Shown here piece by piece: positions 14,243 through 36,277 of a stretch of 64,000 bases of DNA. The position numbers and the translations under genes are program-made. Every line of letters starts with the position of its first letter. Positions within the stretch are counted from its first letter, which is position 1. The notes under the pieces are model-generated. The model saw nothing but the letters and a program-made list of their open reading frames with translations, did no database searches and was not told the origin of the DNA. The stretch comes from Leclercia adecarboxylata (lineage in GTDB: Bacteria; Pseudomonadota; Gammaproteobacteria; Enterobacterales; Enterobacteriaceae), in contig NZ_CP098325.1 of NCBI RefSeq assembly GCF_023639785.1, positions 3,596,001 through 3,660,000 of the forward strand, given 5' to 3'.

Positions 14243-14264
14243 CTGCGAGTCCGCGGGCTCGCAG
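14243..14264. other. Hairpin between yciG and yciF
   Basis: CTGCGAG and CTCGCAG form a perfect 7-bp stem around an 8-base loop with CCGCGG at its centre. No T-run follows, so it is more likely an mRNA processing or stability element that sets different levels of yciG and the downstream genes than a full terminator. Confidence 0.5.
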
Positions 14265-14290
14265 AATTTCGACGTCACTGGAGATAATAT

Positions 14291-14785: not shown

Positions 14786-14816
14786 GCCTGTATTAACCGA
14801 ACCCGAGGAAGAAAAT

Positions 14817-15323: not shown

Positions 15324-15338
15324 CTCAGGAGTGAGCCT

Positions 15339-16211: not shown

Positions 16212-16239
16212 CCCTGCGCCGAAGAAAATGCTGTATCAC

Positions 16240-16264
16240 AATGCCCCGTTTCGTGCGGGGCATT
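16240..16264 (+). terminator. Terminator-like hairpin after katN
   Basis: AATGCCCCG and CGGGGCATT form a perfect 9-bp stem with a 7-base loop, 28 bases after the katN stop. Only a short T tract follows (ATTTCG). It separates the stress operon from the oxidase genes. Confidence 0.7.
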
Positions 16265-16286
16265 TCGCTGACAGGGGTAGAGTACG

Positions 16287-18700: not shown

Positions 18701-18735
18701 GCGCAGCGGCAGTGCCGGGTGGCGGAGGTAAATGC

Positions 18736-18761
18736 AAAACGGCAACTCAGGTTGCCGTTTT
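18736..18761 (+). terminator. Rho-independent terminator of the cio operon
   Basis: The same 11-bp stem as at 4352 (AAAACGGCAAC / GTTGCCGTTTT), here with a 4-base loop, lies 35 bases after the cioB stop. A CCCTCTC-type inverted repeat follows at about 18773-18794, as it does after the copy at 4352. Confidence 0.88.
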
Positions 18762-18762
18762 T

Positions 18763-19002
18763 AGTGTTTGCACCCTCTCTCTTGAGGGAGAGGGCTGGGG
18801 TGAGGGGGAACATGCGACAGAGGTGGTGGTTCCGTTCACCTTACGTTCTGCACTTATCTGTCAGCCGGACCAGGGAGCCGCTGTAAGCCCTTTATAATCA
18901 TGTAGTAATTTCATTGCGTTAAAGGCAAGAAAGTTACCGGGGATTTTTCAGCCCTGGGGATAAGACCGATGTGAGGGCATCAGGCCACATCCGGCCTATA
19001 TG
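18763..19002. repeat. Intergenic region with dispersed repeats
   Basis: Holds a CCCTCTCTCTTGAGGGAGAG inverted repeat at about 18773 and a short REP-like unit at 18978-18998 (GCATCAGGCCACATCCGGCC). No gene is visible between cioB and the convergent SDR gene. Confidence 0.55.
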
Positions 19003-19989: not shown

Positions 19990-19999
19990 CGTGCTCTCC

Positions 20000-20524
20000 T
20001 TAATGCAGTTGCTTTTTCCAGTGCGGGACCTGCCGCAACAGTTCCGAAAGCGCATAGCGAACCGCTTTCTCAATCACGTCTTCGCACTCGCCGGTGAAGT
20101 GCTGCACGGCGGTGGTGACTTCGCCGTGAAAACACCAGCCAAACCAGACGGTGCCTGCCGGAGTGCCATCTTCACCGCCGTCCGGCCCCGCATAACCGCT
20201 GATGGCGATACTGATATCCGCGTCGGCAAGCTTCAGCGCCCCTTCGGCCATCTCGCCCACGGTCTGGCTGCTGACGGCGGTGTGTTTTTCGAGGGTGGCA
20301 TTGCTGACGCCCAGCACCTTGTGCTTGGCTTCGTTGTTAAAGGTGACCACCCCGGTACCAAAAAACGAGGCGGTATCCTCTTCGGCGCACAGCGCCGAGG
20401 CCAGATTGCCGCCGGTGCAGGATTCCGCCGTGGTCAGCAACCAGCCCAGGTCGATCAGAACGGTGGCAACCTGGCGGGTAAGCTCCCTGGTGGTTTTAGC
20501 CTGGTTCCAGATATTGTCTTTCAT
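20000..20524 (-). CDS. CinA/PncC-family nicotinamide-nucleotide amidohydrolase-like protein (YdeJ-like)
   Basis: This 174-residue protein has the family motifs TTAESCTGG at about 31-39 and ISGYAGPDGG with GTPAGTVWFGW. The catalytic-type Ser and Lys region of PncC is present in part. Known members deamidate NMN, but YdeJ itself has no proven activity. A YdeI/YgiW-type gene lies about 1.1 kb away, and ydeI-ydeJ are neighbours in E. coli, so this is probably the YdeJ orthologue. Its ATG overlaps the stop of the DUF421 gene (ATGA). Confidence 0.8.
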   Translation of the reverse strand: MKDNIWNQAKTTRELTRQVATVLIDLGWLLTTAESCTGGNLASALCAEEDTASFFGTGVVTFNNEAKHKVLGVSNATLEKHTAVSSQTVGEMAEGALKLADADISIAISGYAGPDGGEDGTPAGTVWFGWCFHGEVTTAVQHFTGECEDVIEKAVRYALSELLRQVPHWKKQLH

Positions 20525-20973
20525 GATGCATTCTCTTCAGGAATAATCGAAATATGGCCATTACGTTCAAGTATGGCGTATTTAATTTTTTTCAGTTCTG
20601 TTATGCCATGATTCTGACGGGCAGAGACCAGAATATCGTCGCAGGAAACATCCACCTTTTTTAATTTTTCGTTTTGTAATTCGCCGTGTACGACAAGGAA
20701 AACCGGGGAGCCATCGAGCATCGACTCCGCGCCGGAAATATATTTTTTCAGCATGCCAAAAAGCATATCCACCACCACCAGCGTAATAATGGTGAGCATG
20801 GCGCCGGTGACGGAAAAATCATCCCCCAGCAGCGCCTGCTGTGTGGCTTCACTGATAATTAACAGCAGAATGAGATCGAAGCTGGTCATTTGCAGCAGCG
20901 CCCGACGCCCGGCGATTTTAAATACCACCAGCAAAATCAGATAAATCGCCACCGCCCTGAGTATCATTTCCAT
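20521..20973 (-). CDS. DUF421 (YetF/YcaP-like) membrane protein
   Basis: This 150-residue protein has three N-terminal membrane helices containing the DUF421 hallmark AGRRALLQMTSFDLILLLII. A soluble C-terminal domain follows (LDGSPVFLVVHGEL and ILERNGHISIIPEE). DUF421 proteins such as spore YetF homologues act in membranes, but the enterobacterial role is open. It is coupled downstream to the CinA-like gene by ATGA overlap and starts 9 bases after the preceding gene. Confidence 0.85.
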   Translation of the reverse strand: MEMILRAVAIYLILLVVFKIAGRRALLQMTSFDLILLLIISEATQQALLGDDFSVTGAMLTIITLVVVDMLFGMLKKYISGAESMLDGSPVFLVVHGELQNEKLKKVDVSCDDILVSARQNHGITELKKIKYAILERNGHISIIPEENAS

Positions 20974-20982
20974 ACTATTGCC

Positions 20983-21489
20983 TTAGGGATAGATAAATTG
21001 CCAGAACGAGAGACCCGGTTGATTATTGACCGTGACGGTGGTGTCCGTTTTACCGGGGCGATGCGGGGTCGTGTAGAGCCAGACGGTAAAATCCCTGCGC
21101 GGCGCCTGATAAACCAGCACCATTTCCCCGCCCTCACTGTACATGTTGTCAGGCTGCGGCCAGATATTATCGGTCTGAATACGCGCCATATAGTCGCCGC
21201 CGATCCGCAGCGCCAGCGGGGCGGGATCCGCGCCCGGCACGGTGATTTTTAACTCGACGGGGGTCTGTAATCGGCCAAAACGCTGATATTCCACCTGCAG
21301 ATTATGTGCAGCCGTTGTTTTTGTCGCTTCGCTAAAGTACCCGCCGGAAAAAAGCCCCAGCAACGCAGCGGCAATAATGAGTAATAACAGAACAAAACCG
21401 AAGCGGTGGGTGTCGTATTCAAACTTCAGGGCGGCTGGACTTGGTTTCACGCCGGGCAAAGCGGGGGAATTATCTTTTGCTTTTGCCAT
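20983..21489 (-). CDS. Single-pass membrane protein of unknown function, first gene of the DUF421 operon
   Basis: This 168-residue protein has a cytoplasmic Pro/Lys-rich N-terminus (1-28), one membrane helix (FGFVLLLLIIAAALLGLFSG) and a periplasmic beta-rich domain (about 60-168). It heads the operon with DUF421, CinA-like and SDR genes. The fixed pairing with DUF421 suggests a membrane complex whose function I cannot name. Confidence 0.75.
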   Translation of the reverse strand: MAKAKDNSPALPGVKPSPAALKFEYDTHRFGFVLLLLIIAAALLGLFSGGYFSEATKTTAAHNLQVEYQRFGRLQTPVELKITVPGADPAPLALRIGGDYMARIQTDNIWPQPDNMYSEGGEMVLVYQAPRRDFTVWLYTTPHRPGKTDTTVTVNNQPGLSFWQFIYP

Positions 21490-22244: not shown

Positions 22245-23924
22245 ATGATCGCCCGACACAATATCGCCATAATAATAGCGCCAGCCGCTGGCCTGCCTTT
22301 AATTCTCCCTGCCCATGCCGCGCCGCCCGATAATCAATTTATTATTCAGCAGCAGCGCCAGAGAGCGCTGGAGCAGCAATTAACCCCGCCGGTACCGGAC
22401 GTGCGTCTTTCGGAGCCCTCCTCCGGCTTTGGCAGAATTGCCTTTCCTACCGAAACCCCCTGCTTCCCCATTAACCGCGTCGAACTGAGCGGTCAGGAGG
22501 CTCTGCCCCACTGGGTGCCGCTGCAGCGTATTGCGGATCAGGCCCGGGGGCGCTGTCTGGGCGGCAAAGGGATTAACCTGCTGATGAGCACGATGCAGAA
22601 CCGCATCGTCGATCACGGCTGGATCACCACCCGCGTGCTGGCCCCGTCGCAGGATCTGAAAAGCGGCACCCTGAAGCTCGCCATCGTGCCGGGCACTGTG
22701 CGCCACGTAAAACTGACCGAAGAGAGCGACGACTACATCCAGCTCTACAGCGCCTTCCCGGCACATGAAGGGGAGCTGCTGGATCTGCGCGATATTGAAC
22801 AGGGGCTGGAAAACCTGCAGCGCCTGCCGACGGTCGAGGCCAACATGGAGCTGCTGCCGGGGGAAAACCCCGGCGAGACCGACGTGGTGATTACCCGCAA
22901 GCAGAGCAAAATGTGGCGCATCGGCCTGTCGCTGGACGATGCCGGAACCGAAACCACCGGGCGTTACCAGGGCGGCGTGACCCTGTCGCTGGATAACCCC
23001 TTCTCGCTGAGCGATCTGCTGTATGTCTCCGCCAGCCACGATCTGAACGACAAGGGCGGCAAAGGCAGTAAAAACGTCACCGCCCACTACTCGGTGCCCT
23101 TTGGCTACTGGCTGCTGGGCGTGACCGGCAGCGACTACGACTACCACCAGACCGTCGCCGGGCTGAACGAGGACTATCGCTACAGCGGTAAAAGTAAAAA
23201 CCTCGACGTTCAGCTGAGCCGCGTGCTGCACCGCAGCGGCTCGCAAAAAACCACCTTCACCTGGGACGTGATGGCGCGGGAGACCCGCAACTATATCGAC
23301 GATACCGAAGTGGGCGTTCAGCACCGGCAGACCGCCGCCTGGCGTATCGGGCTGGATCATCGCCACTACATCGGCCAGGCGACCCTGGACGCGGGCATCA
23401 GCTATCAGCGCGGCACCCGCTGGTTCGGCGCGCAGCCTGCGCCGGAAGAGTACTGGGGCGATGCCACGGCGCTCAGCAAAATTACCCTGCTCAGCGCCCA
23501 GCTCGATCTGCCGTTTGCTCTCGGCACGCAAAACTTCCGCTACAACGTGCAGTACCTGCGCCAGATAAGCAACACGCCGCTGACGCCGCAGGATCAGTTC
23601 GCCATCGGCAACCGCTGGACGGTGCGCGGCTTTGACGGCGAGCGCACCCTGAGCGCCAGCCACGGCTGGTACGTGCGTAACGATGTGGCCTGGCGCACGC
23701 CGCTGCCAAATCAGGAGTTCTACCTGGGTGCCGATTACGGCGAAGTGGGCGGTTACAGTTCCGACCTGCAGGTAGGCAAACACCTGGCGGGCGGCGTGGC
23801 GGGCCTGCGCGGCAACGCCTTTAACACCGGTTACGACCTGTTCGCCGGAACGCCGTTCTCGAAGCCAGACGGCTTTGAAACCAGCGATCTGACCCTCGGC
23901 TTTAATCTCAACTGGAGCTGGTGA
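22245..23924 (+). CDS. cdiB: CdiB, two-partner secretion outer membrane transporter (ShlB/FhaC family)
   Basis: This 559-residue Omp85-type TpsB protein exports CdiA. ATG 22245 is chosen for its signal peptide ([19 protein letters not shown] to AHA-APP, about residue 25) and a weak GGATT site; ATG 22233 is an alternative. The mature part has a Gln-rich linker, POTRA domains (to about 230) and a 16-strand barrel with [10 protein letters not shown], the conserved lid-lock motif, ending in NLNWSW with an aromatic C-terminus. It overlaps cdiC by one base (TGATG). Confidence 0.92.
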
Positions 23925-24472
23925 TGCGCGTCGGCAATCTGGATATCAAAGCGCCGCTGATCCTCGGCGGAGAAGAGAGCGAGGCCGAGGTGCTGGGCGC
24001 CACCGTCTGGCTGTGGATGCACTCCCCGATGCACCGGGATGCCCCCCTTCACGCCCTGCCCACCCTGCTGCTGCCGATCATCAAGCGCGGACAGTACGTG
24101 CTGGTGAGCGAAAACGGGCGTCCCGTCTTTTTCATGAGCTGGGCCTGGCTGAACGAGGAGGCGGAAGCCCGCTACCTCACCCGCCCGGCTATCGAGATGA
24201 AAGAGGCGGACTGGGACTGCGGGGACAGGATCTGGTTCTGCGACTGGATCGCCCCCTTCGGCCATACCGCCGCGATGTACAACCTGATGCGCCGCGACAT
24301 CTTCCCCGACCACGTCTGCCGCGCGCTCTATCACCGGGGCGCGGAGCGTGGCAAGCGCGTGATGCTGTTCCACGGCAGCCACGTCAGCCGTCAACATGCC
24401 CGAGAATGGCAACAGAATCACCCGCTCACTGTGCCCCTGCCGGAAGCGTTTAAAGGAATGAACCATGAATAA
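23924..24472 (+). CDS. cdiC: CdiC, HlyC-type toxin-activating lysine acyltransferase
   Basis: This 182-residue protein aligns with HlyC. His37 lies in WMHSPMHRD (HlyC His23) and Asp107 in RIWFCDWIAPFG (HlyC Asp92), so both catalytic residues are kept. HlyC enzymes move a fatty acyl chain from acyl-ACP to internal lysines of RTX toxins in the cytosol. Here it sits between the TpsB and TpsA genes with overlaps on both sides, and no RTX toxin is present, so CdiA is the logical substrate. This matches the CdiC enzymes of class IV cdi loci, where lipidation of CdiA helps target-cell recognition. Nothing in the sequence shows which lysines are modified. Confidence 0.9.
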   Translation: MRVGNLDIKAPLILGGEESEAEVLGATVWLWMHSPMHRDAPLHALPTLLLPIIKRGQYVLVSENGRPVFFMSWAWLNEEAEARYLTRPAIEMKEADWDCGDRIWFCDWIAPFGHTAAMYNLMRRDIFPDHVCRALYHRGAERGKRVMLFHGSHVSRQHAREWQQNHPLTVPLPEAFKGMNHE

Positions 24473-27400
24473 GAACCTGTACCGAATTGTCTTTAACAAA
24501 GCGCGCGGCATGCTGATGGTGGTGGCGGATATCGCCCGCTCCGGCCGCGCCGGTTCGTCCCGTTCTTCCGGCATCGGCCATACCCACAGCCAGCTTATCG
24601 GCAAGGTGAGCGCCCTGAGCTTTAGCCTGTGGCTGGCGATGGGAGCCGTACAGACGGCGCAGGCCAACATCGTGGCCGACGCCGGGGCGCCAAAAAACCA
24701 GCAGCCAACGGTGGTTAACAGCGCCAACGGCACGCCGCAGGTCAATATCCAGACGCCATCCGCTGCCGGGGTATCGCGCAATAACTACACCCGGTTCGAT
24801 GTGGATCAGAAAGGGGCGATCCTCAATAACTCGCATAAAAACGTGCAGACTAACCTGGGCGGCATGGTGGCGGGCAACCCGTGGCTGGCGAAAGGCGAAG
24901 CCAAAGTGATCCTCAATGAGGTGAGTTCCCGCGATCCGAGCAAGCTGAACGGCATGATCGAAGTGGCCGGTAAAAAAGCCCAGGTGGTGATCGCCAACCC
25001 GTCAGGGATCACCTGTAGCGGCTGCGGCTTTATTAACGCCAACCGCGCCACCCTCACCACCGGCCAGCCGCAGATGAAAGACGGCGCGCTGACCGGGTTT
25101 AACGTCGAGCGCGGCGAAGTGGTGGTCGAGGGCGCGGGGATGGACACCTCCGGCGCGGATTACACCGATATCATCGCCCGTTCGGTCAAGGTCAACGCCG
25201 GGCTGTGGGCTAAGGATCTGAAGGTGACCACCGGGCGCAACACCGTCGATGCCGCCCACGAGGTGATTGAAAAAGGCAGCGACGACCCGGCCACCCGCCC
25301 GCAGCTGGCGGTGGACGTGGCCAGCCTTGGCGGCATGTACGCGGGCAAGATCCGCATGGTGGGCACCGAGCGCGGCGTCGGGGTGCGTAACGCCGGGGCT
25401 ATCGGCGCCCAGGCGGGCAGCGTGACGATCTCCGCCGACGGACGCATCGAAAACAGCGGCACCCTGCGGGCCGCAGAGAGCGCCAGCCTGCAAACCGCGG
25501 GCGAACTCAACAACAGCGGCGTGATTACCGCCGCCAGTAACGTCCGGGCGAGCGCGGCCAGCCTCACCGGCAGCCAGCAGAGCGTGCTGGCTGCCGGGGT
25601 GAAGAGCGACGGCACCTTCGCCGGGGCGGGCGATCTGGAACTGAGCACCAGCGGCCAGCTGAGCGCCCACGGGCAAACCCTGGCGGGGGGCAATCTCAGC
25701 GCCCGCGGCCAGGGGGTGGACGTCAGCGGCAGCCAGACCCAGGCTAAACATGTCCTGCTGGATGGCGGCGCGGAAGATGTGAACACCGCCAGCGCGAAGG
25801 TCAACGCCAGCGAACTCACCGTCCGCAGCGGTAAGATGCTTAACAACAGCGGCGGCAGCCTGAGCGCGGAGAAAATCAACCTCAGCGCTCACGACCTCAA
25901 CAACCAGAAAGGTAAAATCGTCCAGCGCGGCAGCGACGCTTTCGCAGTGAATCTGCCGGGCAAGCTCGATAACCAGCAGGGGCAGATTGGCGCGGCCAAC
26001 GGCGTGCAGCTCAAGGCTGACAACATCGACAACAGCGCCGGGCAGATTGTGGCGGTGGCGGGCAATACCCGGCTGGACGCCGGGACGGTAAACAACCAGC
26101 AGGGGCTGATCTCAGCCAGCGCGGGTGACGGCGAGATCGCCAGCCAGCAGGCGGTGAACAACGTCAAAGGCCGCATCGAGGCGGCCAAAACCCAGCGCAT
26201 CAGCGCCGGGAGCCTCGACAACCAGCAGGGGGTGATTGTCGCCGACGGCGCAACGCTGGCCCTGAATGAATTTGATAACCGTTCCGGCTCCCTGCTCTCT
26301 CAGGGTTCGCTTAGCCTCGAGAGCGGCGCGCTGAATAACCAGAGCGGCTTCCTGGCAAGCGACGGCGACTTTAGCCTCAGCGCGGGTACTATCGACAATA
26401 CCGACGGGCAGATTGGCGCGAACCGGACGTTAACCGCCGGGTTCGACACCCTCACCAATAACGGCGGCGCGCTGAAATCGGTCGGGGCTATGACCCTCAG
26501 CGGCGGCCTGCTGGATAACCGCCAGGGGACTACCTTCTCCGGCAACAGCCTGAATTTCAACGGCGGCACGCTGAACAATACGTCCGGGCAGCTTGCTGCG
26601 ACAGGGAGCCTGTCGCTGGGCACCTCGCAGCTCATCAACACTCAAGGCGTCCTGCAGGGCGACGGGATCAATCTCACTTCCGGTACCCTCGATAACCGCT
26701 CTGGCACCCTGAACAGCCTGGGGGCCCTGAACCTCTCGGCAGACAATCTCAATAACCAGGCGGGCACTCTGGCGGCGAGCGGCGCGGCGGATGTCGCGGC
26801 CACAGAGCTCGATAACCGCAGCGGCGGGCGCATCATTGGCGAGGCCGATACCGCCCTGCATACCGATAATCTGCAAAACGGCGGCGGGCAGATCCAGTCG
26901 GTGGGGGATCTGCTCCTCGACAGCGCCAGGGGTGCGGTGGATAACGTCTCCGGGCTGATTCGCAGCGGCAAAAACGTGACCCTCAATGCCGTCAAATTTG
27001 TGAATACCAGTACGTCTGGTGAAAACCAGGGGCTGGAGGGCCAGAGCCTGACGCTGAACACCGATACCCTGGATAACCAGCGCGGCAGCATCCTGGCGAA
27101 CAACACCCTGAGTATCAATAACGGCGGCGTGCTGAACAACGGCGCAGGGGTCCTGGCCTCGGGCGATACCCTGGATCTCAGCGGTAGCGCCCTGAATCTG
27201 TTGAACGCGGACGGCACCCTTAAGGCAGGTAAAACGCTCAGCCTGGACGCGGCATCGCTGGACGCCAGCGGCCAGCTGCTGTCGCTGGGGGACATGACGC
27301 TTCACAGCGGCAGCGGCGTGAACAACAGCGGCACTACCATTGCCAACGGCAACCTGACCTTCACGACCGACGGCGATCTCACCAACAGCGGCCAGCTGAT

Positions 27401-30400
27401 GGCGGGTAGCGCCCTTAACGTGCAGAGCGCGAACCTGAATAACCTCGCCGGGGGTGAAATCAACGCCGGCAGCACCACCCTGACGGCCAGCGGCACGGTA
27501 CGCAATACCGGCCTGATCGACGGCATCGCTACCCGCATCAACGCCGACACCCTGACCAACACCGGCACCGGGCGGATCTACGGCGATGCGGTGGGGATCA
27601 ATGTGGATACCTTCAACAACCTCGCCGAAAACGGCACCGCGGCGACGCTCGCCGGTCGTGAGCACGTGAGCCTGGGCGTGCAGACCCTGAACAACGCCGA
27701 CCACGGCCTGATCTACAGCGCGGGCAGCATGAGTATCGGCGGCGCGCTGGACGACAGCGGCGCCGTGACCGGCCGGGCGGGAACGATCAATAACCACAGC
27801 TCCACCATCGAGTCTGCCGAGGATATGGCCATCGCCGCCGGGCAGATCAATAACATCAACGACCACTTCTCCACCGAAGTGGTGCGGGTGTCGCAGGAAG
27901 ATCTCACCGACTATCAGCACTCCGGCTCCACCAACCGCTGGAGCTCAACTGAGAAAGGCGTCTGGGTGGATGACAACTCCTCCGACGGGCTGCGCAACCT
28001 GAATACGCCAGAAGATACCGGCTCAAATAACGACAACTTTAACCAGTACGACTACACCCGCACCATCGACGAAACGCGCATCAAAGAGAGCGACCCGGCG
28101 AAGATCCTCGCCGGGGGCAACCTGCTGATGACCGGCGACAAGCTGTTTAACGACAAGAGCCAGGTGATTGCGGGCGGCACCCTGGCAATCGACCAGATGG
28201 GTAGCGTGAAGAACGAGGACGTGCCCGGCAAGCGTTACACCACTGATGAGGGCACCGTCACCCACTACTACCGTATTCGCCACAAAGGCGACGATGAACA
28301 GGGACGCGATCGCACGGCTTACACGCCGCCAACCACCATTCAGGATATCGCCCTGAAGCCGGGCCAGCTGGTCAGCAACGGCAGCGTGGAGGGCAGCAAC
28401 CTCAGCCTCTCCCCGCTGGTGTTAACGGGCACCGACGTGACCATTGGTCAGGCCGCGGGCGTGGCCCCTGCCCCGCAGCAGACCGTCTCGCCGGGCGAGC
28501 CGGTGACCCCGCCTGCCGGACAGCAGTTTGAAGTGACTCCGGCCGACGGCGCGATCCGCATTATCGGCCCCAACACCACCCTGCCGGACAACAGCCTGTT
28601 CAAGGTGAACCCGTCGGCGGAGGTGCCGTACCTGGTGGAGACCGATCCGCGCTTTACCAACGAGCGCCAGTGGCTCGGCAGCGACTATATGCAGGACGCC
28701 TTTACCGCCGACGGCGACATGACCCAGAAGCGGCTGGGGGATGGCTACTACGAGCAGCGGCTGATCCGCGAGCAGGTGATCGGCATCACCGGCCAGCGCT
28801 ATCTGGACGGCTACAGCAACGACGAAGAGCAGTACAAGGCGCTGATGGATCGCGGCATCACCTTCGGCAAGCAGTACGATCTGAAGATTGGCGTGGCGCT
28901 GACGCCTGCGCAGATGGCGCTGCTGACCGGGGATATCGTCTGGCTGGTGAACACCCGGGTGAAGATGCCGGACGGCTCAACCGAGAACGTGCTGGTGCCG
29001 CAGGTCTACGCCAAAGTGAAACCGGGCGATATCGACGGCTCCGGCGCGCTGATTGCCGGGAACAACGTCTCTATCAAGCTCAACGGCGACCTGTTTAACC
29101 GCGGGACCCTTGCCGGGCGCAAAGTGCTGCAGCTGGACGCCGACAACATCACCAACCAGACCGGCACCATTCAGGGGGCGGATGTTAACCTCAACGCGCG
29201 CACCGATATCAACAATATCGGCGGTGCCATCGTGGGAGACAGCAGCCTGCTGGCCAGCGCCGGGCGCGACATCAACCTCACCAGCACCACCCTCAGCGCC
29301 GAAAGCGTCAACGGCGAGAACCGCTTCGCCCGCACCACCATCGACAGCGTGTCGGGTATTTACGTCCAGGGCGACGACGGCAAACTGGCGCTGCAGTCAG
29401 GGCGGGATATTAACCTGACCGGGGCACAGGTTATCGCCAGCGGCGAGAACGGTACCGCCCAGCTGGTGGCCGGGCGGGATATGAACCTCAACGATCTCCA
29501 GACCGCCAGCCGCGATAATCTGGTGTGGGATGCCGACAACAGCCTGAAACAGGGCCAGACGAACAGCATCGGCAGCGAAGTGACGGGCAAAGGCGACGTG
29601 ACCCTGGCCGCCGGGAATGACCTCAACGCCCGCGCCGCTGCCCTCTCCGCCGGGCAGGCGCTGAACGTCAGCGCCGGGAATAACTTGACCCTGACGGCGG
29701 GTGAGAATACCCAGGATCTGGACGAACGGCACAAAGTGGTGGGCGGTAACGGCTTCCTGTCGAAAACCACCACCACCACCCGCGACCAGATCGCCCGTCA
29801 GACGGTGCAGAGCAGCGAGCTGAACGGCGACACCGTTAACCTCACCGCCGGAAACGATCTCACCGTGCGCGGCAGCAACGTGGCGGGCACCGGGGATGTG
29901 GCCCTGCTGGCAGGCAACAACCTGAGCGTGGAGACCCAGGCCGAACGCAATAATGAGCTGCACCAGAAGCAGGAGAAAAAATCGGGTCTGCTGAGCTCGG
30001 GCGGCATCGGCTTTAGCGTCGGCACACAGAGCATTAAAACCACCGACACCGGCGCGGACGCGACCCAGGCGGGCAGCACCGTGGGCAGCGTCGACGGCGA
30101 CCTGACCCTGCGGGCGGGGGATCGCCTGACGGTGAGCGGCTCGGATCTGGTGGCGGGTCAGGACATGACGCTGACCGGTAAAAACGTCGATATCACGGCG
30201 GTGAATAACCGCAGCCAGCAGACCCACGAGGTGGAGCAGAAAACCTCCGGCCTGACGCTGGCGCTCTCCGGCACCGTCGGCAGCGCGCTGAACAGCGCCG
30301 TTGAAGCCTCCCAGCAGGCGAAATCCTCCGGCAGCGGCCGCTTACAGGCGTTGCAGGGGGTGAAGGCCGCGCTCTCCGGCGTGCAGGCCGCCCAGGCCGC

Positions 30401-33068
30401 ACGTATGGATCAGGCCCAGGGTGCGGACGCGGGCAACACCAATACCGTGGGCATCAGCCTCTCCTACGGCAGCCAGTCGTCGAAATCGACCCAGTACAGC
30501 GAGCAGAACACCGCTCAGGGCAGCACCCTCAACGCCGGGCGCGATCTGAGCGTTGTCGCCACCGGCAGCGGCGAGCGCGGCACGGACGGCGACCTGACCG
30601 TGGAAGGCAGCCAGCTGAAGGCGGGCAACGATATTACGCTTGCCGCCAACCGCGATCTGTATCTGCGCTCTGCGCAGAACACCCAGCTGCTGGACGGCAA
30701 AAACGAGAGCAAGGGCGGCAGCGTCGGGGTTGGGATCGGCGTCGGCTCCGGCGGCTTTGGCCTGAACATCTCCGCCAGCGTCAACCGCGGCAAAGGCAAC
30801 GAGAGCGGCAATGGCACCACCCACAGCGAGACCACCGTGGACGCGGGCCGCCAGGTGAATCTTCTGACCGGACGTGACGCCACCCTGACCGGGGCGCAGG
30901 TAAGCGGCGAGACGGTAAGGGCGGATATTGGCCGCAACCTGACCCTCACCTCCGAGCAGGACAGCGATCGCTACGATTCGAAACAGCAGAACGCCAGCGC
31001 GGGGGGCAGCTTCAGCATCGGCTCCATGACCGGCTCGGCCAGCGTCAACCTCAGCCGCGACAAGATGCACAGCAACTACGACTCTGTCGTGGAGCAGACC
31101 GGGATCTTCGCCGGCAAAGGCGGCTACGACATCACCGTGGGCGAACATACCCAGCTCAACGGGGCGGTGATTGGCTCGACGGCGACCGCCGATAAAAACC
31201 GTCTCGATACCGGCACCATTGGCTTCAGCGATATTGAAAACCGCGCCGATTTCGAAGTGGAACACCAGAGCGTGGGGATGAGCACCGGGGGCAGCATCGG
31301 CAGCCAGTTTGCCGGGAATATGGCGAACGGCCTGCTGGTGGGGGCGAACCGCGACGGGCATGACAGCAGCACCACGCACGCCGCAGTATCGGAGGGCACC
31401 CTGATTGTCCGCGACCAGGATCGTCAGGCGCAGGATGTCAACCAGCTCAGCCGCGACGTGGAGCACGCCAACCAGACGCTCTCCCCTATCTTCGACAAAG
31501 AGAAAGAGCAGGAGCGGCTCCAGCAGGCGCAGCTCATCGGTGAGATTGGTAATCAGGTGGCGGATATTGCCCGCACCGAGGGGAGCATCCGCGCCACCAA
31601 CGCGGCGAAAGAGAAGCTGAAAAACGTCAACGCCCAGGATCTGCAGGAGGCGAAAGCGGCGTGGGAGAAAGCCAACCCGGGCAAAACCGCGACGCTGGAA
31701 GATATTAACGGCCAGATCTACCAGACGGCGTACAACGACGCGCTCAGTGCCTCCGGCTTTGGCACCGGTGGGCAGTATCAGCAGGCGATTCAGGCGGCGA
31801 CGGCAGCGGTTCAGGGCCTGGCCGGAAGCGATCTCAGTGCCGCTCTCGCGGGCGGTGCTGCGCCATACGTGGCGGAGGTGATTGGTCATTACAGCGGTCT
31901 GAACGACGCGGGCAAAGTCGCCGCCCACGCGGTGGTCAACGCCGCGCTGGCCGCCGCTCAGGGGCAGGACGCACTGGCGGGTGCCGCCGGTGCCGCCACG
32001 GGCGAACTGGTGGGGATGATCGCTACCGAGATGTACGGCAAATCGGCCGATGAGCTGGATGAAACGCAGAAGCAGACGGTTTCTGCGCTGGCGACGCTGG
32101 CTGCGGGGCTTTCCGGCGGTCTGGCGGGCGACAGCTCAGCTTCTGCTGTTGCCGGGGCGCAGGCGGGTAAAACGACGGTTGAGAATAACTATCTGAGTAC
32201 GGCAGAAGCGCGTCAGCTGGATAAAGAGCTACTGGAGTGTAAAGCTTCCGGCGGTGACTGCATGAAAGTGGTTGAGAAGTATCTGGCAATCAGTAATAAG
32301 AAAAGCAAAGAGCTTGCGGATGCCTGTACCGGCGGAGGGGTGACCTGCGTTACCTGGCAGGAGCTGATCCAGGCCTCGACCAACGTGGCCAACGATCCGC
32401 AGCCAGGGCAGTTCCGCCTGGATGAAAAACTCAAAGATCCGACGGCAGCGGCACTGGTGAATTACCTGAACGGCGCCGACCTGAAATTCCTTCAGGACAA
32501 TATCACAACAGGCGATCGTGTACTGTCTGTGGTGATGGATCCTACCTCCTGGCCGGTGATCATCATGGGCGGACGAGCGATTCTGACCAATGCCGTAAAC
32601 AACAGCAAAGAGCAGCTTATCGCTGTGGGTGTGGGTGTCGGTTTAGGGGCGGGTATTCAGTACAAGACTACGGGTGAAGTCAAACTTGCCGATCTTATTG
32701 GATCCGGGGTTATCGGGGCAATCACCGCGGGTAAAGGTTATAACCCAACCGTGACATGGAACGCAGCAGGTGGTTACTATCAAGCTCAAATCAATGGTGA
32801 CGATCCTATGCTCGCAGCGTTACTGAGTAAGGCGGGTGCTTCTGCTGGTTTCGCTACAGGCAACATGATCAAAGTGCCGTTTGATAAAATATTCAACCCG
32901 GTATCAAAACAGTACGAGTGGGTTCCAACAGGCGTCTGGACAATAACCAAACCTGTACCACAACACCCATTACCTTCAATACTGGGTAACGCAGGGGACT
33001 CTGCGATGTCGGGTATGGTTTCAGATAAACTGAAAGAGAGCGGTAGTAAGAATGAAAAACAGCACTAA
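24465..33068 (+). CDS. cdiA: CdiA, contact-dependent growth inhibition toxin/adhesin
   Basis: This 2867-residue uninterrupted protein starts 8 bases inside cdiC. In order it has: an extended signal (ESPR) at 1-25 and signal peptide to Ala67; the TPS haemagglutination domain, about 68-330, with ANPSGITCSG at 177-186; FHA-1 repeats to about 1100; a Tyr/Asp-rich receptor-binding-like segment about 1106-1530; FHA-2 repeats about 1540-2250; an alanine-rich pre-toxin domain about 2457-2571; VENN at 2572-2575; and a toxin tip of 292 residues. Made by CdiB export, it kills or arrests touching neighbours. The tip overlaps the immunity gene by 17 bases. Base composition becomes more AT-rich after VENN, a mark of exchange at that point. 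Confidence 0.93.
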   Translation: MNKNLYRIVFNKARGMLMVVADIARSGRAGSSRSSGIGHTHSQLIGKVSALSFSLWLAMGAVQTAQANIVADAGAPKNQQPTVVNSANGTPQVNIQTPSAAGVSRNNYTRFDVDQKGAILNNSHKNVQTNLGGMVAGNPWLAKGEAKVILNEVSSRDPSKLNGMIEVAGKKAQVVIANPSGITCSGCGFINANRATLTTGQPQMKDGALTGFNVERGEVVVEGAGMDTSGADYTDIIARSVKVNAGLWAKDLKVTTGRNTVDAAHEVIEKGSDDPATRPQLAVDVASLGGMYAGKIRMVGTERGVGVRNAGAIGAQAGSVTISADGRIENSGTLRAAESASLQTAGELNNSGVITAASNVRASAASLTGSQQSVLAAGVKSDGTFAGAGDLELSTSGQLSAHGQTLAGGNLSARGQGVDVSGSQTQAKHVLLDGGAEDVNTASAKVNASELTVRSGKMLNNSGGSLSAEKINLSAHDLNNQKGKIVQRGSDAFAVNLPGKLDNQQGQIGAANGVQLKADNIDNSAGQIVAVAGNTRLDAGTVNNQQGLISASAGDGEIASQQAVNNVKGRIEAAKTQRISAGSLDNQQGVIVADGATLALNEFDNRSGSLLSQGSLSLESGALNNQSGFLASDGDFSLSAGTIDNTDGQIGANRTLTAGFDTLTNNGGALKSVGAMTLSGGLLDNRQGTTFSGNSLNFNGGTLNNTSGQLAATGSLSLGTSQLINTQGVLQGDGINLTSGTLDNRSGTLNSLGALNLSADNLNNQAGTLAASGAADVAATELDNRSGGRIIGEADTALHTDNLQNGGGQIQSVGDLLLDSARGAVDNVSGLIRSGKNVTLNAVKFVNTSTSGENQGLEGQSLTLNTDTLDNQRGSILANNTLSINNGGVLNNGAGVLASGDTLDLSGSALNLLNADGTLKAGKTLSLDAASLDASGQLLSLGDMTLHSGSGVNNSGTTIANGNLTFTTDGDLTNSGQLMAGSALNVQSANLNNLAGGEINAGSTTLTASGTVRNTGLIDGIATRINADTLTNTGTGRIYGDAVGINVDTFNNLAENGTAATLAGREHVSLGVQTLNNADHGLIYSAGSMSIGGALDDSGAVTGRAGTINNHSSTIESAEDMAIAAGQINNINDHFSTEVVRVSQEDLTDYQHSGSTNRWSSTEKGVWVDDNSSDGLRNLNTPEDTGSNNDNFNQYDYTRTIDETRIKESDPAKILAGGNLLMTGDKLFNDKSQVIAGGTLAIDQMGSVKNEDVPGKRYTTDEGTVTHYYRIRHKGDDEQGRDRTAYTPPTTIQDIALKPGQLVSNGSVEGSNLSLSPLVLTGTDVTIGQAAGVAPAPQQTVSPGEPVTPPAGQQFEVTPADGAIRIIGPNTTLPDNSLFKVNPSAEVPYLVETDPRFTNERQWLGSDYMQDAFTADGDMTQKRLGDGYYEQRLIREQVIGITGQRYLDGYSNDEEQYKALMDRGITFGKQYDLKIGVALTPAQMALLTGDIVWLVNTRVKMPDGSTENVLVPQVYAKVKPGDIDGSGALIAGNNVSIKLNGDLFNRGTLAGRKVLQLDADNITNQTGTIQGADVNLNARTDINNIGGAIVGDSSLLASAGRDINLTSTTLSAESVNGENRFARTTIDSVSGIYVQGDDGKLALQSGRDINLTGAQVIASGENGTAQLVAGRDMNLNDLQTASRDNLVWDADNSLKQGQTNSIGSEVTGKGDVTLAAGNDLNARAAALSAGQALNVSAGNNLTLTAGENTQDLDERHKVVGGNGFLSKTTTTTRDQIARQTVQSSELNGDTVNLTAGNDLTVRGSNVAGTGDVALLAGNNLSVETQAERNNELHQKQEKKSGLLSSGGIGFSVGTQSIKTTDTGADATQAGSTVGSVDGDLTLRAGDRLTVSGSDLVAGQDMTLTGKNVDITAVNNRSQQTHEVEQKTSGLTLALSGTVGSALNSAVEASQQAKSSGSGRLQALQGVKAALSGVQAAQAARMDQAQGADAGNTNTVGISLSYGSQSSKSTQYSEQNTAQGSTLNAGRDLSVVATGSGERGTDGDLTVEGSQLKAGNDITLAANRDLYLRSAQNTQLLDGKNESKGGSVGVGIGVGSGGFGLNISASVNRGKGNESGNGTTHSETTVDAGRQVNLLTGRDATLTGAQVSGETVRADIGRNLTLTSEQDSDRYDSKQQNASAGGSFSIGSMTGSASVNLSRDKMHSNYDSVVEQTGIFAGKGGYDITVGEHTQLNGAVIGSTATADKNRLDTGTIGFSDIENRADFEVEHQSVGMSTGGSIGSQFAGNMANGLLVGANRDGHDSSTTHAAVSEGTLIVRDQDRQAQDVNQLSRDVEHANQTLSPIFDKEKEQERLQQAQLIGEIGNQVADIARTEGSIRATNAAKEKLKNVNAQDLQEAKAAWEKANPGKTATLEDINGQIYQTAYNDALSASGFGTGGQYQQAIQAATAAVQGLAGSDLSAALAGGAAPYVAEVIGHYSGLNDAGKVAAHAVVNAALAAAQGQDALAGAAGAATGELVGMIATEMYGKSADELDETQKQTVSALATLAAGLSGGLAGDSSASAVAGAQAGKTTVENNYLSTAEARQLDKELLECKASGGDCMKVVEKYLAISNKKSKELADACTGGGVTCVTWQELIQASTNVANDPQPGQFRLDEKLKDPTAAALVNYLNGADLKFLQDNITTGDRVLSVVMDPTSWPVIIMGGRAILTNAVNNSKEQLIAVGVGVGLGAGIQYKTTGEVKLADLIGSGVIGAITAGKGYNPTVTWNAAGGYYQAQINGDDPMLAALLSKAGASAGFATGNMIKVPFDKIFNPVSKQYEWVPTGVWTITKPVPQHPLPSILGNAGDSAMSGMVSDKLKESGSKNEKQH
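32178..33065 (+). other. CdiA-CT: VENN boundary, entry domain and toxin domain
   Basis: After VENN come about 115 residues with paired cysteines (LLECKASGGDC, then ADACTGGGVTC) that look like a translocation (entry) domain. The toxin proper then begins around DPTSWPVIIMGG. It is rich in Gly, Ala and Val with two hydrophobic stretches (IAVGVGVGLGAGIQY and LADLIGSGVIGAITAG). No nuclease motif is visible. With a two-helix membrane immunity protein, a membrane-acting (ionophore or pore) toxin is the best inference. Confidence 0.6.
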
Positions 33069-33276
33069 ATCGTTTATTAACCTTGTTTACCTGTGCTGCT
33101 CGATAGGTCTGGCTGTGTTCATTCTGACGCTCCTTGGCCGTTTAGTCGGTGCGGGATTAGCATGGAATGTGAAGGAGGATTTCCCCTTCTCTTTCAAGGA
33201 TGTGTTGATATGTCTTGAGTTAACCTGGCTGGGGCTGCCTGCGGGTTTGATCATCTGGTTTTTTTATCACCGATAA
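33052..33276 (+). CDS. cdiI: CdiI, small two-helix membrane immunity protein
   Basis: This 74-residue protein has two membrane helices (about 9-33 and 51-71) joined by an acidic loop, WNVKEDFPFSFKDV. It begins inside the end of cdiA, the usual place and coupling for cdiI. Membrane immunity proteins normally protect against toxins that act on the inner membrane. The motif FPF....LGLPAG is shared with the protein at 33350-33580. The function rests on position and topology. Confidence 0.75.
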   Translation: MKNSTKSFINLVYLCCSIGLAVFILTLLGRLVGAGLAWNVKEDFPFSFKDVLICLELTWLGLPAGLIIWFFYHR

Positions 33277-33349: not shown

Positions 33350-33580
33350 ATGAGACTCGATAATTCCAAAAAATCCCTTTGGACGCTTTTGGGCATATGT
33401 TTTTTGATGTGCATCGCATTGATGATAATTGGTCTTTTTTCTTATCTGGTGAAAGGCTGGCTAATCCGGGACTTTGATAAGCCTTTTCCATTCGGAAAAG
33501 AAGAGATAATTACTATTTTAAAAATCAGTGTGTTAGGTTTACCTGCGGGGATAGTGTTCTGGATTTTTGGTATCCGTTAG
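33350..33580 (+). CDS. Second small membrane immunity-like protein, related to CdiI
   Basis: This 76-residue protein has two membrane helices (about 10-32 and 52-73) with a loop DFDKPFPFGKEEII. It shares the CdiI layout and the FPF ... LGLPAG ... W.F..R residues but only about a quarter to a third overall. ATG 33350 is preferred to an upstream in-frame TTG. It is probably immunity to a related toxin variant formerly present at this locus. Confidence 0.65.
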   Translation: MRLDNSKKSLWTLLGICFLMCIALMIIGLFSYLVKGWLIRDFDKPFPFGKEEIITILKISVLGLPAGIVFWIFGIR

Positions 33581-33605
33581 AAGTATATTCGCGAGGTTCG
33601 CTGAT

Positions 33606-34061
33606 ATGTTAGTCAATATTAATGAAATACAAAGACAAGCTGATGAGATGATTTTACGAGCAGGCTTTCCAAAACATTCAGTGAATCTGTGTTCTGCTCC
33701 CTATGGCGATGGCACCCCCTATATTTCATTCGAAAATGATTTATATAACTATATTTATTCAGAAAGAGGGTATGAGTTCTCCCGAAAAGTCACTCACTCT
33801 TTGAATACGCTGCTTTATTGGATTATGTCCGAATTCGCCTGTCAGATTGCCTACCAATATAAGTTAGATCACAGGGTTGAAGAGAGGGATGGACGGCGCA
33901 TCGCTTTTCCAAAATTTATTGAAATAATGGCGAATATGAACCCAATATGGGAGTTGGAAGCGCGATATGAAATTCAAAAAAATTACGGGAGCCACTCAGT
34001 ACATCTTCAGTACACGGAGCATAATCATCTGTGTCACGCAACGTTAATTAAAACACATTGA
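33606..34061 (+). CDS. Imm63-like immunity protein
   Basis: This 151-residue soluble protein contains GDGTPYISFENDLYNYIYSE, then RKVTHSLNTLLYWIMSE and DGRRIAFPKFIEIMANMNP. This is the pattern I associate with the Imm63 family of polymorphic-toxin immunity proteins. It is AT-rich and unlike its metabolic neighbours in composition. No toxin that should pair with it is present in the window, so it is an orphan immunity gene. The family name is from recall. Confidence 0.65.
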   Translation: MLVNINEIQRQADEMILRAGFPKHSVNLCSAPYGDGTPYISFENDLYNYIYSERGYEFSRKVTHSLNTLLYWIMSEFACQIAYQYKLDHRVEERDGRRIAFPKFIEIMANMNPIWELEARYEIQKNYGSHSVHLQYTEHNHLCHATLIKTH

Positions 34062-34157
34062 TTTGTAAAGATTTTAATAAAATTTTAGCCGAATCGGTGT
34101 ATAGCGATTACGGGCACAAATATTGCCCTCTTTGAGCAAATTTATCTGTCAGGAGGA

Positions 34158-34493
34158 ATGATGCGTGAATCCCAGAATATTTATAATGACATTGGTTCAG
34201 TACTGCTCTCGATCGCACCTGATACTGCGGAAAAAATCATTCTGTGTGCTACGTTAGATCCGGAAAGTGACTGTGGTGAGTTTACTTATGACTATATAGA
34301 TAAACAGGGTAACCAGCACTGGATCACTGAAACCGCAGATGCCAGTGCAAGACTTTTAGATCTTTTAGTCGAACTAAGAAATTTCTTTGTTGATAACTTT
34401 AAATCACAAGAAAAGCCATTCTGGCATGGGTGTGAAGTAACGATAAACATTGAAACACTGAAAATAAATATCGACTTCAAGTATGAGAGTTAA
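34158..34493 (+). CDS. YezG/DUF600-like immunity protein
   Basis: This 111-residue acidic soluble protein begins IYNDIGSVLLSIAPDTAEKI and continues ATLDPESDCGEFTYDYIDK, which fits the YezG-type immunity family (partners of secreted nuclease toxins). CAGGAGGA precedes two adjacent ATGs (34158 and 34161). Like its neighbour it lacks a matching toxin here. The family call is tentative. Confidence 0.6.
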   Translation: MMRESQNIYNDIGSVLLSIAPDTAEKIILCATLDPESDCGEFTYDYIDKQGNQHWITETADASARLLDLLVELRNFFVDNFKSQEKPFWHGCEVTINIETLKINIDFKYES

Positions 34494-34513
34494 CAAACAG
34501 TCTCTCGCCCCTG

Positions 34514-34533
34514 CCGGCGGGATGTTGGGTTTA
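34514..34533. repeat. Spacer repeat between immunity genes, copy 2
   Basis: CCGGCGGGATGTTGGGTTTA differs by two bases from 33318-33337. It lies 20 bases after an immunity gene stop and just upstream of the next small gene, the same relative place as copy 1. Confidence 0.5.
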
Positions 34534-34558
34534 CGTTAGTAATAAGGGGAAAGGGTCT

Positions 34559-34807
34559 ATGACTCACTCGCATCATTTGATTAAAATTATCGCTGATATG
34601 GCCATTTTCCTTGAATTCACTGGCGAAGATTCGCTCTGTCCCGATGCCGCTGTGGAAATGCTGGAACATATTGCCGCCGAGCTTCAATTATTAACGGACG
34701 ATGAGAAAGGGAGCATTATCGATTCCTTTGCAGAAATTGCAAAAGCCTATCGGGGGAATGAGTCCGACTTTGTCAAAGATCTGCCCGATACCTTTGGTTT
34801 GCGTTGA
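34559..34807 (+). CDS. Small acidic protein in the immunity array
   Basis: This 82-residue, acidic, helical protein (FLEFTGEDSLCPDAAVEMLE) has AAGGGGAAAGGGTC before the ATG. I do not recognise a family. Its place between an immunity gene and an orphan toxin tip suggests another immunity protein. Its end touches the first possible codon (TTG 34804) of the orphan module. Confidence 0.6.
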   Translation: MTHSHHLIKIIADMAIFLEFTGEDSLCPDAAVEMLEHIAAELQLLTDDEKGSIIDSFAEIAKAYRGNESDFVKDLPDTFGLR

Positions 34808-36036
34808 CCAGTAGTTGTCAGCCAGGCGCTATAAGGAGAAAGAGCAGGAGCGATCCCAGTGCCGCCCTCGCAGGCGGTGCTGCGCCATACGTGGCGGAGG
34901 TGATTGGTCATTACAGCGGTCTGAACGACGAGGGCAAAGTTGCCGCGCACGCGGTGGTCAACGCTGCGCTGGCCGCCGCCCAGGGACAAAACGCGCTGGC
35001 GGGTGCCGCCGGTGCCGCCACGGGCGAGCTGGTAGGGATGATCGCCCTCGAGATGTACGGCAAATCTGCCGATAAGCTGGACGAAACGCAGAAGCAGACG
35101 GTCTCTGCGCTGGCGACACTGGCGGCGGGCTTATCGGGTGGGCTGGTAGGCGACAGTTCTGCTTCCGCTGTGGCGGGGGCGCAGGCGGGTAAAACGACGG
35201 TTGAGAATAATTTCCTTGGTTCTACATCTTCAGACAAACTTGACAAAGCCGTTGAGAAAATTAGGAACGGTGATAAGACGCTAGCGACAGCCAGTGAGCT
35301 AATTAAGTTGGAAAATTCTGACAAACGCAGTGATGCATTGGTTGCAAAATTTACTAAAGATCCATCACAGATGAGCAGCAATGAACGGGCTGAATTGGCA
35401 GGTTACTTACGTGTTTACGCATCAGAGATGGAGAGGGAATACGGTTCTGCTGTTTCGCAAGAACTGGTCAAAGGTTTGCTCTCCGGACAGGATTACATGA
35501 AACGTAACCCTGACTCTGAGGCCATGTCTAAGGCTCAGACAATCATGAATACCTGGGGCTACCATAAATCGAATGCCAGCATTGGCGACGCACCTGTCAT
35601 GTTCGGGGGCAGCGTGCTGGGCATTACTGTGAAAGGTATGGCCGCTAATGCTGCAATTGGTATTGGAGTAAATACGGGTGTGCAACTGGCAGGAAAGGAT
35701 CCTTTAAGTTATGTGGACGCAATCATGGCGGGAGTAACAGCCGCAGCAACAACGGGGAAAGGTATTCTGGTTTCAACTCCTATAAATATGGGTGGTGCGG
35801 CAATAGGTAGTAGTATTAAAGGTGAAGATCCAACTAACTCAACTATTGGCGCCGGAGTTGGCTCTCTATTTGGTGGTGGTATTGGCAAAGTGGCAACCGA
35901 GCAGCTAAAACCTGTTATAAAAGAAGGTAGTGCTGAAATAATTGGAGCAGCTACGGGGGCCACTGTGGGAGAGGTTTCCGGCAATAAAGTTAAAGATAAA
36001 CTTGACAATGCAGGAAAGAAAAATGGAAAAAATTAA
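34804..36036 (+). CDS. Orphan CdiA C-terminal module (pre-toxin, VENN and toxin)
   Basis: From about 34852 this frame repeats the CdiA pre-toxin domain almost exactly (PSAALAGGAAPYVAEVIGHY through KTTVENNFL). It then diverges fully after VENN into a different 270-residue tip. That tip has an entry-like helical part with KFTKDPSQMSSNERAELAGY and a Gly/Ala-rich, membrane-seeking part. There is no signal, secretion domain or good start: TTG 34804 lacks a ribosome site. It is therefore silent unless recombined onto cdiA. It overlaps its own membrane immunity gene by 14 bases. Confidence 0.8.
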   Translation: MTSSCQPGAIRRKSRSDPSAALAGGAAPYVAEVIGHYSGLNDEGKVAAHAVVNAALAAAQGQNALAGAAGAATGELVGMIALEMYGKSADKLDETQKQTVSALATLAAGLSGGLVGDSSASAVAGAQAGKTTVENNFLGSTSSDKLDKAVEKIRNGDKTLATASELIKLENSDKRSDALVAKFTKDPSQMSSNERAELAGYLRVYASEMEREYGSAVSQELVKGLLSGQDYMKRNPDSEAMSKAQTIMNTWGYHKSNASIGDAPVMFGGSVLGITVKGMAANAAIGIGVNTGVQLAGKDPLSYVDAIMAGVTAAATTGKGILVSTPINMGGAAIGSSIKGEDPTNSTIGAGVGSLFGGGIGKVATEQLKPVIKEGSAEIIGAATGATVGEVSGNKVKDKLDNAGKKNGKN

Positions 36037-36277
36037 CATTAAGGATTTGGTTAAACTGGTTTGCATATGTGTAAGCATATTGTTTATTGCGGTAGTCATC
36101 GGCTATCTAATCGTTTCAGTAATCGTTTATTTTAAAATAAATGTATTTGAGTTCGATTGGAGAGAAGCTTTCAGTGATGCCTTAAGGAAAGGTATCGCTG
36201 GCGGCTTAATACTTGCTTTCGGCATCTGGATTAAAGCCAGGTTACAAGAGCGTAAAAAGAAAAAAAGAAGCAGATAA
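36023..36277 (+). CDS. Membrane immunity protein of the orphan CdiA-CT module
   Basis: This 84-residue protein has one long or two close helices at 10-38, an acidic loop FEFDWREAFSDA, another helix at 56-70 and a very basic tail (KARLQERKKKKRSR). It starts inside the orphan toxin frame, as cdiI does in cdiA. The helix - acidic loop - helix layout mirrors the proteins at 33052 and 33350, pointing to a membrane-acting cognate toxin. Confidence 0.7.
   Translation: MEKINIKDLVKLVCICVSILFIAVVIGYLIVSVIVYFKINVFEFDWREAFSDALRKGIAGGLILAFGIWIKARLQERKKKKRSR

What the first reader, a model, noticed from the sequence alone, without database searches (positions are those of the whole stretch)
22245..33276. 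CDI locus with a built-in HlyC-type acyltransferase (cdiB-cdiC-cdiA-cdiI)
A gene with both HlyC catalytic residues (His37 and Asp107) is placed between the TpsB and TpsA genes and overlaps both. No RTX toxin exists nearby, so CdiA itself is the expected substrate. Class IV CdiA effectors are known to be lipidated by such an enzyme; the modified lysines and receptor for this particular CdiA are open.
Basis: partly seen in the sequence, partly recalled or inferred. Interest (0 to 1): 0.75.

Follow-up and report, generated by a model that had tools for sequence, protein, structure and literature searches.

The report
Acylated bacterial contact-killing locus (class IV)
This is a set of genes with which one bacterium kills its neighbours on contact, including an enzyme that puts a fatty tail on the killing protein; the kind was already known from E. 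coli, and here the attachment point can be predicted down to a single residue.

Summary
In detail: cdiB (22245-23924), cdiC (23924-24472), cdiA (24465-33068), cdiI (33052-33276). CdiC is an HlyC-family lysyl acyltransferase (PF02794, 2.3e-36) with His37 and Asp107, the only one in the genome; a search for RTX repeats found none. The reading is also right, but the system is known: cdiBCAI loci were published in 2016, and in 2021 E. coli class IV CdiA was shown to be acylated on Lys1467 and to bind the LPS inner core. This is a new member from a Leclercia-like enterobacterium. It is Lys in 41 of 41 aligned domains, and the model puts it in a beta-hairpin turn. A hairpin motif ([YWF]xRxxxK) was present in 45 of 45 clusters with cdiC and 0 of 25 without. 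In fresh genomes it was present in 9 of 9 with cdiC and 1 of 9 without (a cdiA fragment); only two of those nine carry a strong class IV domain. In one other family of 168 genomes, HlyC occurred in 9 of 10 with a full class IV domain and 0 of 158 others. Acylation, acyl chain and receptor of this protein are untested.

The parts
22245..23924 (+). cdiB: two-partner secretion outer-membrane transporter (an earlier TTG at 22209 is also in frame)
   Evidence: Pfam ShlB 2.3e-107, POTRA_2, POTRA_3 (run from 22209)
23924..24472 (+). cdiC: HlyC-type lysyl acyltransferase, 182 aa, His37 and Asp107
   Evidence: PF02794 2.3e-36; ApxC 3.7e-34; catalytic residues
24465..33068 (+). cdiA: 2867-aa effector (signal, TPS domain, FHA repeats, receptor-binding domain, FHA-2, PT-VENN, toxic C-terminus)
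   Evidence: Pfam and NCBIfam; VENN at 2572
27765..29084 (+). class-IV receptor-binding domain plus the following conserved domain, CdiA residues 1101-1540
   Evidence: homologous domain in 40 of the 41 foreign loci held (L002-L042; no hit in L038); 62% identical to that of E. coli D10
28284..28286 (+). codon of Lys1274, the predicted acylation site (HYYRIRHKG)
   Evidence: Lys in 41 of 41 aligned domains; turn of a predicted beta-hairpin
32178..33065 (+). CdiA-CT toxin region from VENN: entry domain like that of 4g6u (TA271/EC869 CdiA-CT), then a probable membrane-active domain
   Evidence: 4g6u E 7.6e-6 over residues 8-135; C-terminal part 27% identical to the orphan toxin, E 8e-7
33052..33276 (+). 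cdiI: 74-aa hydrophobic immunity protein
   Evidence: hydropathy
33350..33580 (+). second immunity gene, paralogue of cdiI (34% identical)
   Evidence: (cdiI query)
34804..36036 (+). orphan CdiA-CT module with its own VENN; 362 bp are 90% identical to the cdiA pretoxin region
   Evidence: PT-VENN 2.9e-20; blastn
36023..36277 (+). hydrophobic immunity gene of the orphan module

Best explanation
This is a class IV contact-dependent growth inhibition locus. CdiC takes a fatty acyl group from acyl-ACP and joins it in the cytoplasm to one lysine, Lys1274, in the turn of a beta-hairpin in the CdiA receptor-binding domain. CdiB exports CdiA as a filament with this domain at its tip. On contact the basic and aromatic hairpin docks on the LPS inner core of the neighbour and the acyl chain inserts into the lipid leaflet, which holds the contact; export then resumes and the CdiA-CT is delivered. 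The CT probably enters through a YciB-type entry domain and probably disturbs the inner membrane; CdiI in the producer's membrane blocks it. Shown here: gene order, enzyme family and catalytic residues, conserved lysine and its association with cdiC. Inferred from published E. coli work: acylation, chain, LPS receptor, delivery. Inferred weakly: the mode of killing.
For: CdiC family and catalytic pair; His37 and Asp107 in 43 of 43 aligned CdiC rows (the window, its own copy L001 and 41 other loci) and in six of six further loci. The site aligned with the published E. coli lysine is Lys in 41 of 41 domains while residues 1271-1273 vary. The motif [YWF][YFWSHK]RxxxK was in 45 of 45 cdiC+ and 0 of 25 cdiC-less clusters on a CdiB tree with five changes of cdiC state, going with cdiC in 5 of 5 independent pairs. 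Written down first and then tested on fresh genomes: 9 of 9 cdiC+ and 1 of 9 cdiC-less; the one is a cdiA fragment with no cdiB, cdiC or TPS part recognised in 10 kb. In a family of 168 genomes (f30, unnamed; I take it to be Pseudomonadaceae) HlyC is in 9 of 10 genomes with a full class IV domain and 0 of 158 without (Fisher 4e-14, not corrected for kinship). K1274 lies between strands 1253-1272 and 1277-1286 of the model. Published mechanism: PMC8510554.
Against: No acylation, receptor or killing has been measured for this protein. Lys alone does not track cdiC: 12 of 25 cdiC-less clusters also align a Lys, often in Lys-rich stretches. The motif was partly fitted to the first set. In the fresh set only two of the nine cdiC-less loci have a domain above 400 bits (L122 without the motif, L138 with it); the other seven match more weakly or in pieces and may not be class IV, and five of the nine cdiC+ loci share one genus code. 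Independent pairs reach only p = 0.0625. The whole-domain model is mediocre (mean pLDDT 59; block means 72-94 for residues 1111-1300), and 2021 CD data called the isolated domain largely unstructured. The toxin model failed (pLDDT 39.8).
Confidence: 0.87

Rival explanations
1. Acylation happens as described but the receptor is not the LPS inner core: this lineage recognises another surface molecule.
For: The hairpin tip has drifted: net charge -1 in the window against +5 in E. coli D10 over the same stretch; the domains are only 62% identical.
Against: The Tyr-Arg-x-x-x-Lys frame of the tip is kept; the published E. coli domain of the same class binds LPS (PMC8510554).
Confidence: 0.2
2. CdiC modifies another protein, such as an RTX toxin elsewhere or CdiB, and CdiA is not its substrate.
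For: HlyC enzymes usually serve RTX toxins (general knowledge); the 2021 paper did not exclude further sites on CdiA or CdiB.
Against: No PF00353 repeat in the genome; a single HlyC gene, inside the cdi operon; HlyC presence follows the class IV domain in family f30.
Confidence: 0.04
3. The locus is a relic: cdiC or cdiA no longer works.
For: In some relatives the open frame that holds the domain begins late (L003, L013, L040, L041), and orphan modules point to recombination at the 3' end.
Against: All four window genes have open frames with catalytic residues and VENN intact; most fetched relatives keep the same order.
Confidence: 0.05

Closest known systems
E. coli STEC_O31 class IV cdiBCAI (Halvorsen 2021, PMC8510554, parts 1-5 of 8 read)
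   Same: gene order, HlyC-type CdiC with His37 and Asp107, receptor-binding-domain class, acceptor Lys position
   Different: here one Lys in the tip stretch and near-zero net charge where E. coli (D10) has RKKGK; the toxin there is Ntox25, here an entry domain like 4g6u with a glycine-rich tail
Xenorhabdus doucetiae FRM16 cdiBCAI (Ogier 2016, PMC5131962, passages read)
   Same: the cdiBCAI locus type, CdiC co-evolving with CdiB and CdiA
   Different: the CT there is a DNase; CdiA is about 4400 aa, against 2867 here
Leclercia sp. 29361 and L. adecarboxylata loci L002-L004
   Same: CdiC 92-93% identical and receptor-binding domain 92-96% identical; a cdiI relative lies downstream in all three
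   Different: L002 and L004 gave no match to the window's CT; L003 has a related CT in several pieces, and the frame holding its domain begins late
Class V E. coli CdiA (Ruhe 2017, PMC5371414, passages read)
   Same: described as related to class IV and without hlyC; G248 and G386 hold similar cdiC-less clusters (L084, L085)
   Different: L084 and L085 have no cdiC and no YxRxxxK motif; whether they are class V was not settled

Membership tests
class IV CDI (cdiBCAI) | HlyC-type gene between cdiB and cdiA | tested here: met
class IV CDI (cdiBCAI) | catalytic His37 and Asp107 in CdiC | tested here: met
class IV CDI (cdiBCAI) | class IV receptor-binding domain | tested here: met
   62% identity to the domain of E. 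coli D10, whose locus also has cdiC; the STEC_O31 sequence itself was not fetched
class IV CDI (cdiBCAI) | acceptor Lys equivalent to Lys1467 | tested here: met
   K1274; D10 shows RKKGK there, which fits the published Lys1466, Lys1467 and Gly-Lys1469
class IV CDI (cdiBCAI) | CdiC-dependent acylation (3-hydroxydecanoate) | not testable with these tools
   needs mass spectrometry
class IV CDI (cdiBCAI) | LPS inner core as receptor | not testable with these tools
   needs competition against waa mutants
CDI in general | CdiB transporter, CdiA with VENN-bounded C-terminus, adjacent cdiI | tested here: met
RTX toxin operon (hlyCA type) | RTX repeat protein encoded with the acyltransferase | tested here: not met
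   no PF00353 match in the genome
group 4 (YciB-dependent) CDI ionophore | TA271-like entry domain | tested here: met
   4g6u, E 7.6e-6 over residues 8-135; PMC9086364 gives 4G6U as the TA271 toxin and PMC11630599 calls its entry domain YciB-dependent
group 4 (YciB-dependent) CDI ionophore | C-terminal five-helix bundle and hydrophobic CdiI | tested here: inconclusive
   toxin model failed and no stretch of the CT reached a hydropathy mean of 1.2; CdiI is hydrophobic

The most novel reading that the evidence does not exclude
In this Leclercia-Enterobacter lineage the hairpin tip has lost the basic patch found in E. coli (one Lys, net charge near zero), so binding has shifted from charge plus lipid to lipid-led anchoring. 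Killing would then be nearly all-or-none on CdiC rather than about 100-fold helped, and [YWF]xRxxxK at the hairpin turn would be the general CdiC recognition signature that marks acylated CdiA proteins.
Probability: 0.2. Interest if true: 0.45.

Novelty: new member of a known kind. Interest (0 to 1): 0.3.

Why it matters
The mechanism is already published, so the locus itself is not a discovery. It offers a cleaner test system: a natural substrate with a single lysine in the tip stretch, where endoproteinase Arg-C would give a nine-residue peptide (1273-1281) with one Lys, against seven candidates in the published E. coli peptide. The motif that follows cdiC in the window's order and in a second family gives a sequence rule for which CdiA proteins are acylated; it sharpens the published remark on Lys1467, because Lys alone does not separate the groups here.

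Tried and rejected
Charge-for-lipid trade-off: in the first set cdiC-less clusters had a more positive tip (mean +4.2, n = 29, against +1.7, n = 46), but independent pairs gave no significance, and in the fresh set the nine cdiC-less tips ran from -7 to +4 (seven negative) while the nine cdiC+ tips were +2 to +5. Rejected as a general rule.

Lys alone as marker: 12 of 25 cdiC-less clusters align a Lys; rejected in favour of the motif.

Structure: the model of the toxin region was useless (pLDDT 39.8). The receptor-binding-domain model gave no PDB match at E 0.001 or better, and the domain profile had no sequence match in the PDB up to E 0.1.

Is the cdiC-less same-genus type (L084) the E. coli class V? 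In the E. coli search 0 of 188 matching records covered 80% of the query, the best at about 66% identity; not settled.

Rows left out: L003 (frame interrupted, two pieces kept apart), L043 and L051-L080 (short duplicates), L038 (no domain hit). L086, L089, L098, L099 and L120 lie at contig ends; one search counted them as cdiC-less, and from then on they were set aside as unknown. Rows without 400 aa of CdiB (these five, L088, L091, L102, L108, L116) are not in the tree. CdiB of L012 and L084 carries an X, so L084 may be damaged. L118 has a 442-base gap between cdiB and cdiA without a CdiC match and was counted cdiC-less. L106 and L107 are clusters of one genome with near-identical CdiB. In L013, L040 and L041 the frame holding the domain begins late; they were counted cdiC+. 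In the fresh set L125, L126, L127 and L138 had no CdiB placed upstream; none of the seven genomes behind the nine cdiC-less loci has a PF02794 match.

Full report
Observation. The window holds a complete cdiB-cdiC-cdiA-cdiI operon on the + strand. cdiB ends with TGA at 23922-23924, cdiC starts with ATG at 23924 (one shared base) and ends at 24472, and cdiA starts at 24465 (8-base overlap) and ends at 33068; a 74-aa hydrophobic ORF, cdiI, lies at 33052-33276. Pfam places 23924-24472 in the HlyC family at 124.9 bits (cut-off 25; E 2.3e-36), and the solved acyltransferase ApxC is a clear relative (3.7e-34). Residue 37 is His and residue 107 is Asp. Over the genome, PF02794 has one match and the RTX repeat PF00353 none.

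What it is. The gene order and the middle domain of CdiA identify a class IV CDI locus. cdiBCAI loci were described in Xenorhabdus (PMC5131962; passages read). The E. coli class IV system was worked out in 2021 (PMC8510554; [quoted passage not shown] A review and an earlier paper confirm that this is established (PMC5371414 and PMC9086364, passages). Search listings for 'class IV CdiA' gave 7 papers, and for Leclercia with CDI gave 1; from the listings none treats this locus (open-licence library only). The nearest named relatives are Leclercia sp. 29361 and L. adecarboxylata (CdiC 93% and 92%); 26 of 60 same-genus genomes, the own one included, have a CdiC relative.

The acceptor lysine. tblastn with CdiA residues 1101-1540 found the domain in 40 of the 41 foreign loci then held (L002-L042, each with cdiC; no hit in L038). 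In the alignment of those 40 plus the window, Lys1274 is Lys in 41 of 41, while residues 1271-1273 vary. E. coli D10 shows RKKGK at this place, which fits the published Lys1466, Lys1467 and Gly-Lys1469, so K1274 corresponds to Lys1467. Among the 17 other window lysines of the stretch only Lys1458 is as constant (40 of 40 rows with a residue there). K1274 is the only Lys between 1256 and 1298, and Arg-C would release it in the peptide 1273-1281. In the AlphaFold model it lies in the turn between strands 1253-1272 and 1277-1286 (model residues 153-172 and 177-186), in a part with block pLDDT 84-94, although the whole model averages 59.

Does the site follow the enzyme? I searched 394 genomes of the order with the domain profile and with PF02794: 70 and 40 genomes matched. 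I fetched 40 regions, a choice of the listed matches that mostly reach the hairpin, checked cdiB-cdiA spacing and scored the hairpin. Among 70 clusters with a usable CdiB (these plus the loci, D10 and the window), 45 have cdiC and 25 do not. The Lys column is Lys in 45 of 45 and 12 of 25; the motif [YWF][YFWSHK]RxxxK is present in 45 of 45 and 0 of 25. Many of the 25 match the domain only weakly; the closest are L084, L085, L087 and L090 (472, 450, 396 and 389 bits). On the CdiB tree cdiC changes state five times, and the motif goes with it in 5 of 5 independent pairs (p 0.0625, the least that five pairs allow; quick tree with long-branch warnings). Because the motif was partly fitted to these data I wrote it down and tested it on fresh genomes: the phylum sample (398 genomes, some shared with the first; 45 and 24 matches) and one family f30 (168 genomes, unnamed, by its make-up probably Pseudomonadaceae; 64 and 9 matches). 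Of the 18 regions fetched, 9 of 9 with cdiC carry the motif and 1 of 9 without cdiC. The exception, L138, is a cdiA piece that starts at the equivalent of residue 837, with no recognisable cdiB, cdiC or TPS part in the 10 kb held. L122 is telling: a full class IV domain (485 bits), cdiB 27 bases from the cdiA frame, no cdiC, and Ser in place of the Lys. These two are the only cdiC-less fresh loci with a domain above 400 bits, so the fresh test of the negative side is thin. In family f30, HlyC occurs in 9 of the 10 genomes with a full class IV domain and in 0 of the other 158 (Fisher 4e-14, without correction for kinship; five of the ten share one genus code).

Results against. The published remark that cdiC-less class IV proteins (three clusters there) have lost the Lys does not hold as a simple rule in this wider set, since 12 of 25 align a Lys, often in Lys-rich runs where the alignment is uncertain and the proteins may belong to another class. 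My idea that extra positive charge replaces the lipid looked good in the first set and failed in the second. Nothing here measures acylation, chain length, receptor or killing.

The toxin end. From VENN (residue 2572) the CT is 296 aa. Its first part resembles the solved CdiA-CT 4g6u (named EC869 in the PDB, TA271 in PMC9086364; 7.6e-6, residues 8-135), whose entry domain PMC11630599 calls YciB-dependent (part 1 of 11 and passages read). The tail is glycine-rich and related to the tail of the orphan toxin downstream (27%, 8e-7), and cdiI and its tandem copy are small hydrophobic proteins, as that paper describes for CDI ionophores. I think an ionophore likely (about 0.6), but the fold could not be modelled and the CT shows no strongly hydrophobic stretch. 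Downstream lie a cdiI paralogue, an Imm63 gene, a YezG-like gene and an orphan CT with its own immunity gene; orphan toxin and immunity modules are common at CDI loci (PMC9086364, passages).

Verdict. The feature is real and correctly read, and it works most likely as published for E. coli class IV.

Noticed in passing
window 33567-36277: Orphan immunity genes (Imm63 at 33567-34061, YezG-like at 34158-34493) and an orphan CdiA-CT with immunity gene; 362 bp of its pretoxin region are 90% identical to cdiA, so recombination could swap the toxin end.
   Followed up: partly
own genome, contig 1, about 4011482-4027435, minus strand: A second CdiA (open frame 3081 aa) with further CdiA C-terminal pieces downstream, one with a stop; the genome's only HlyC is not there. 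Its match to the class IV profile is limited to the shared part.
   Followed up: partly
window 4915-8478, minus strand: T6SS phospholipase effector Tle3 with two tandem Tli3 immunity genes in a stretch of low G+C (0.45-0.50).
   Followed up: no
L084 (G248) and L085 (G386): Close relatives of the class IV cluster (CdiB 76% identical) without cdiC, with a Lys-rich enlarged hairpin tip (WYAKKKK...KTSQGK); G248 also has a cdiC+ cluster (L083). Possibly the class V type; CdiB of L084 carries an X.
   Followed up: partly
L122 (G745): Full class IV domain with cdiB directly upstream, no cdiC, and Ser at the acceptor position (HYYVIFRSG): a natural unacylated comparison.
   Followed up: partly
L042 (E. 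coli D10): cdiA is annotated as several partial pieces, yet one frame is open from 12472 to 21402 of the locus, so the 'partial' labels look like annotation artefacts.
   Followed up: partly
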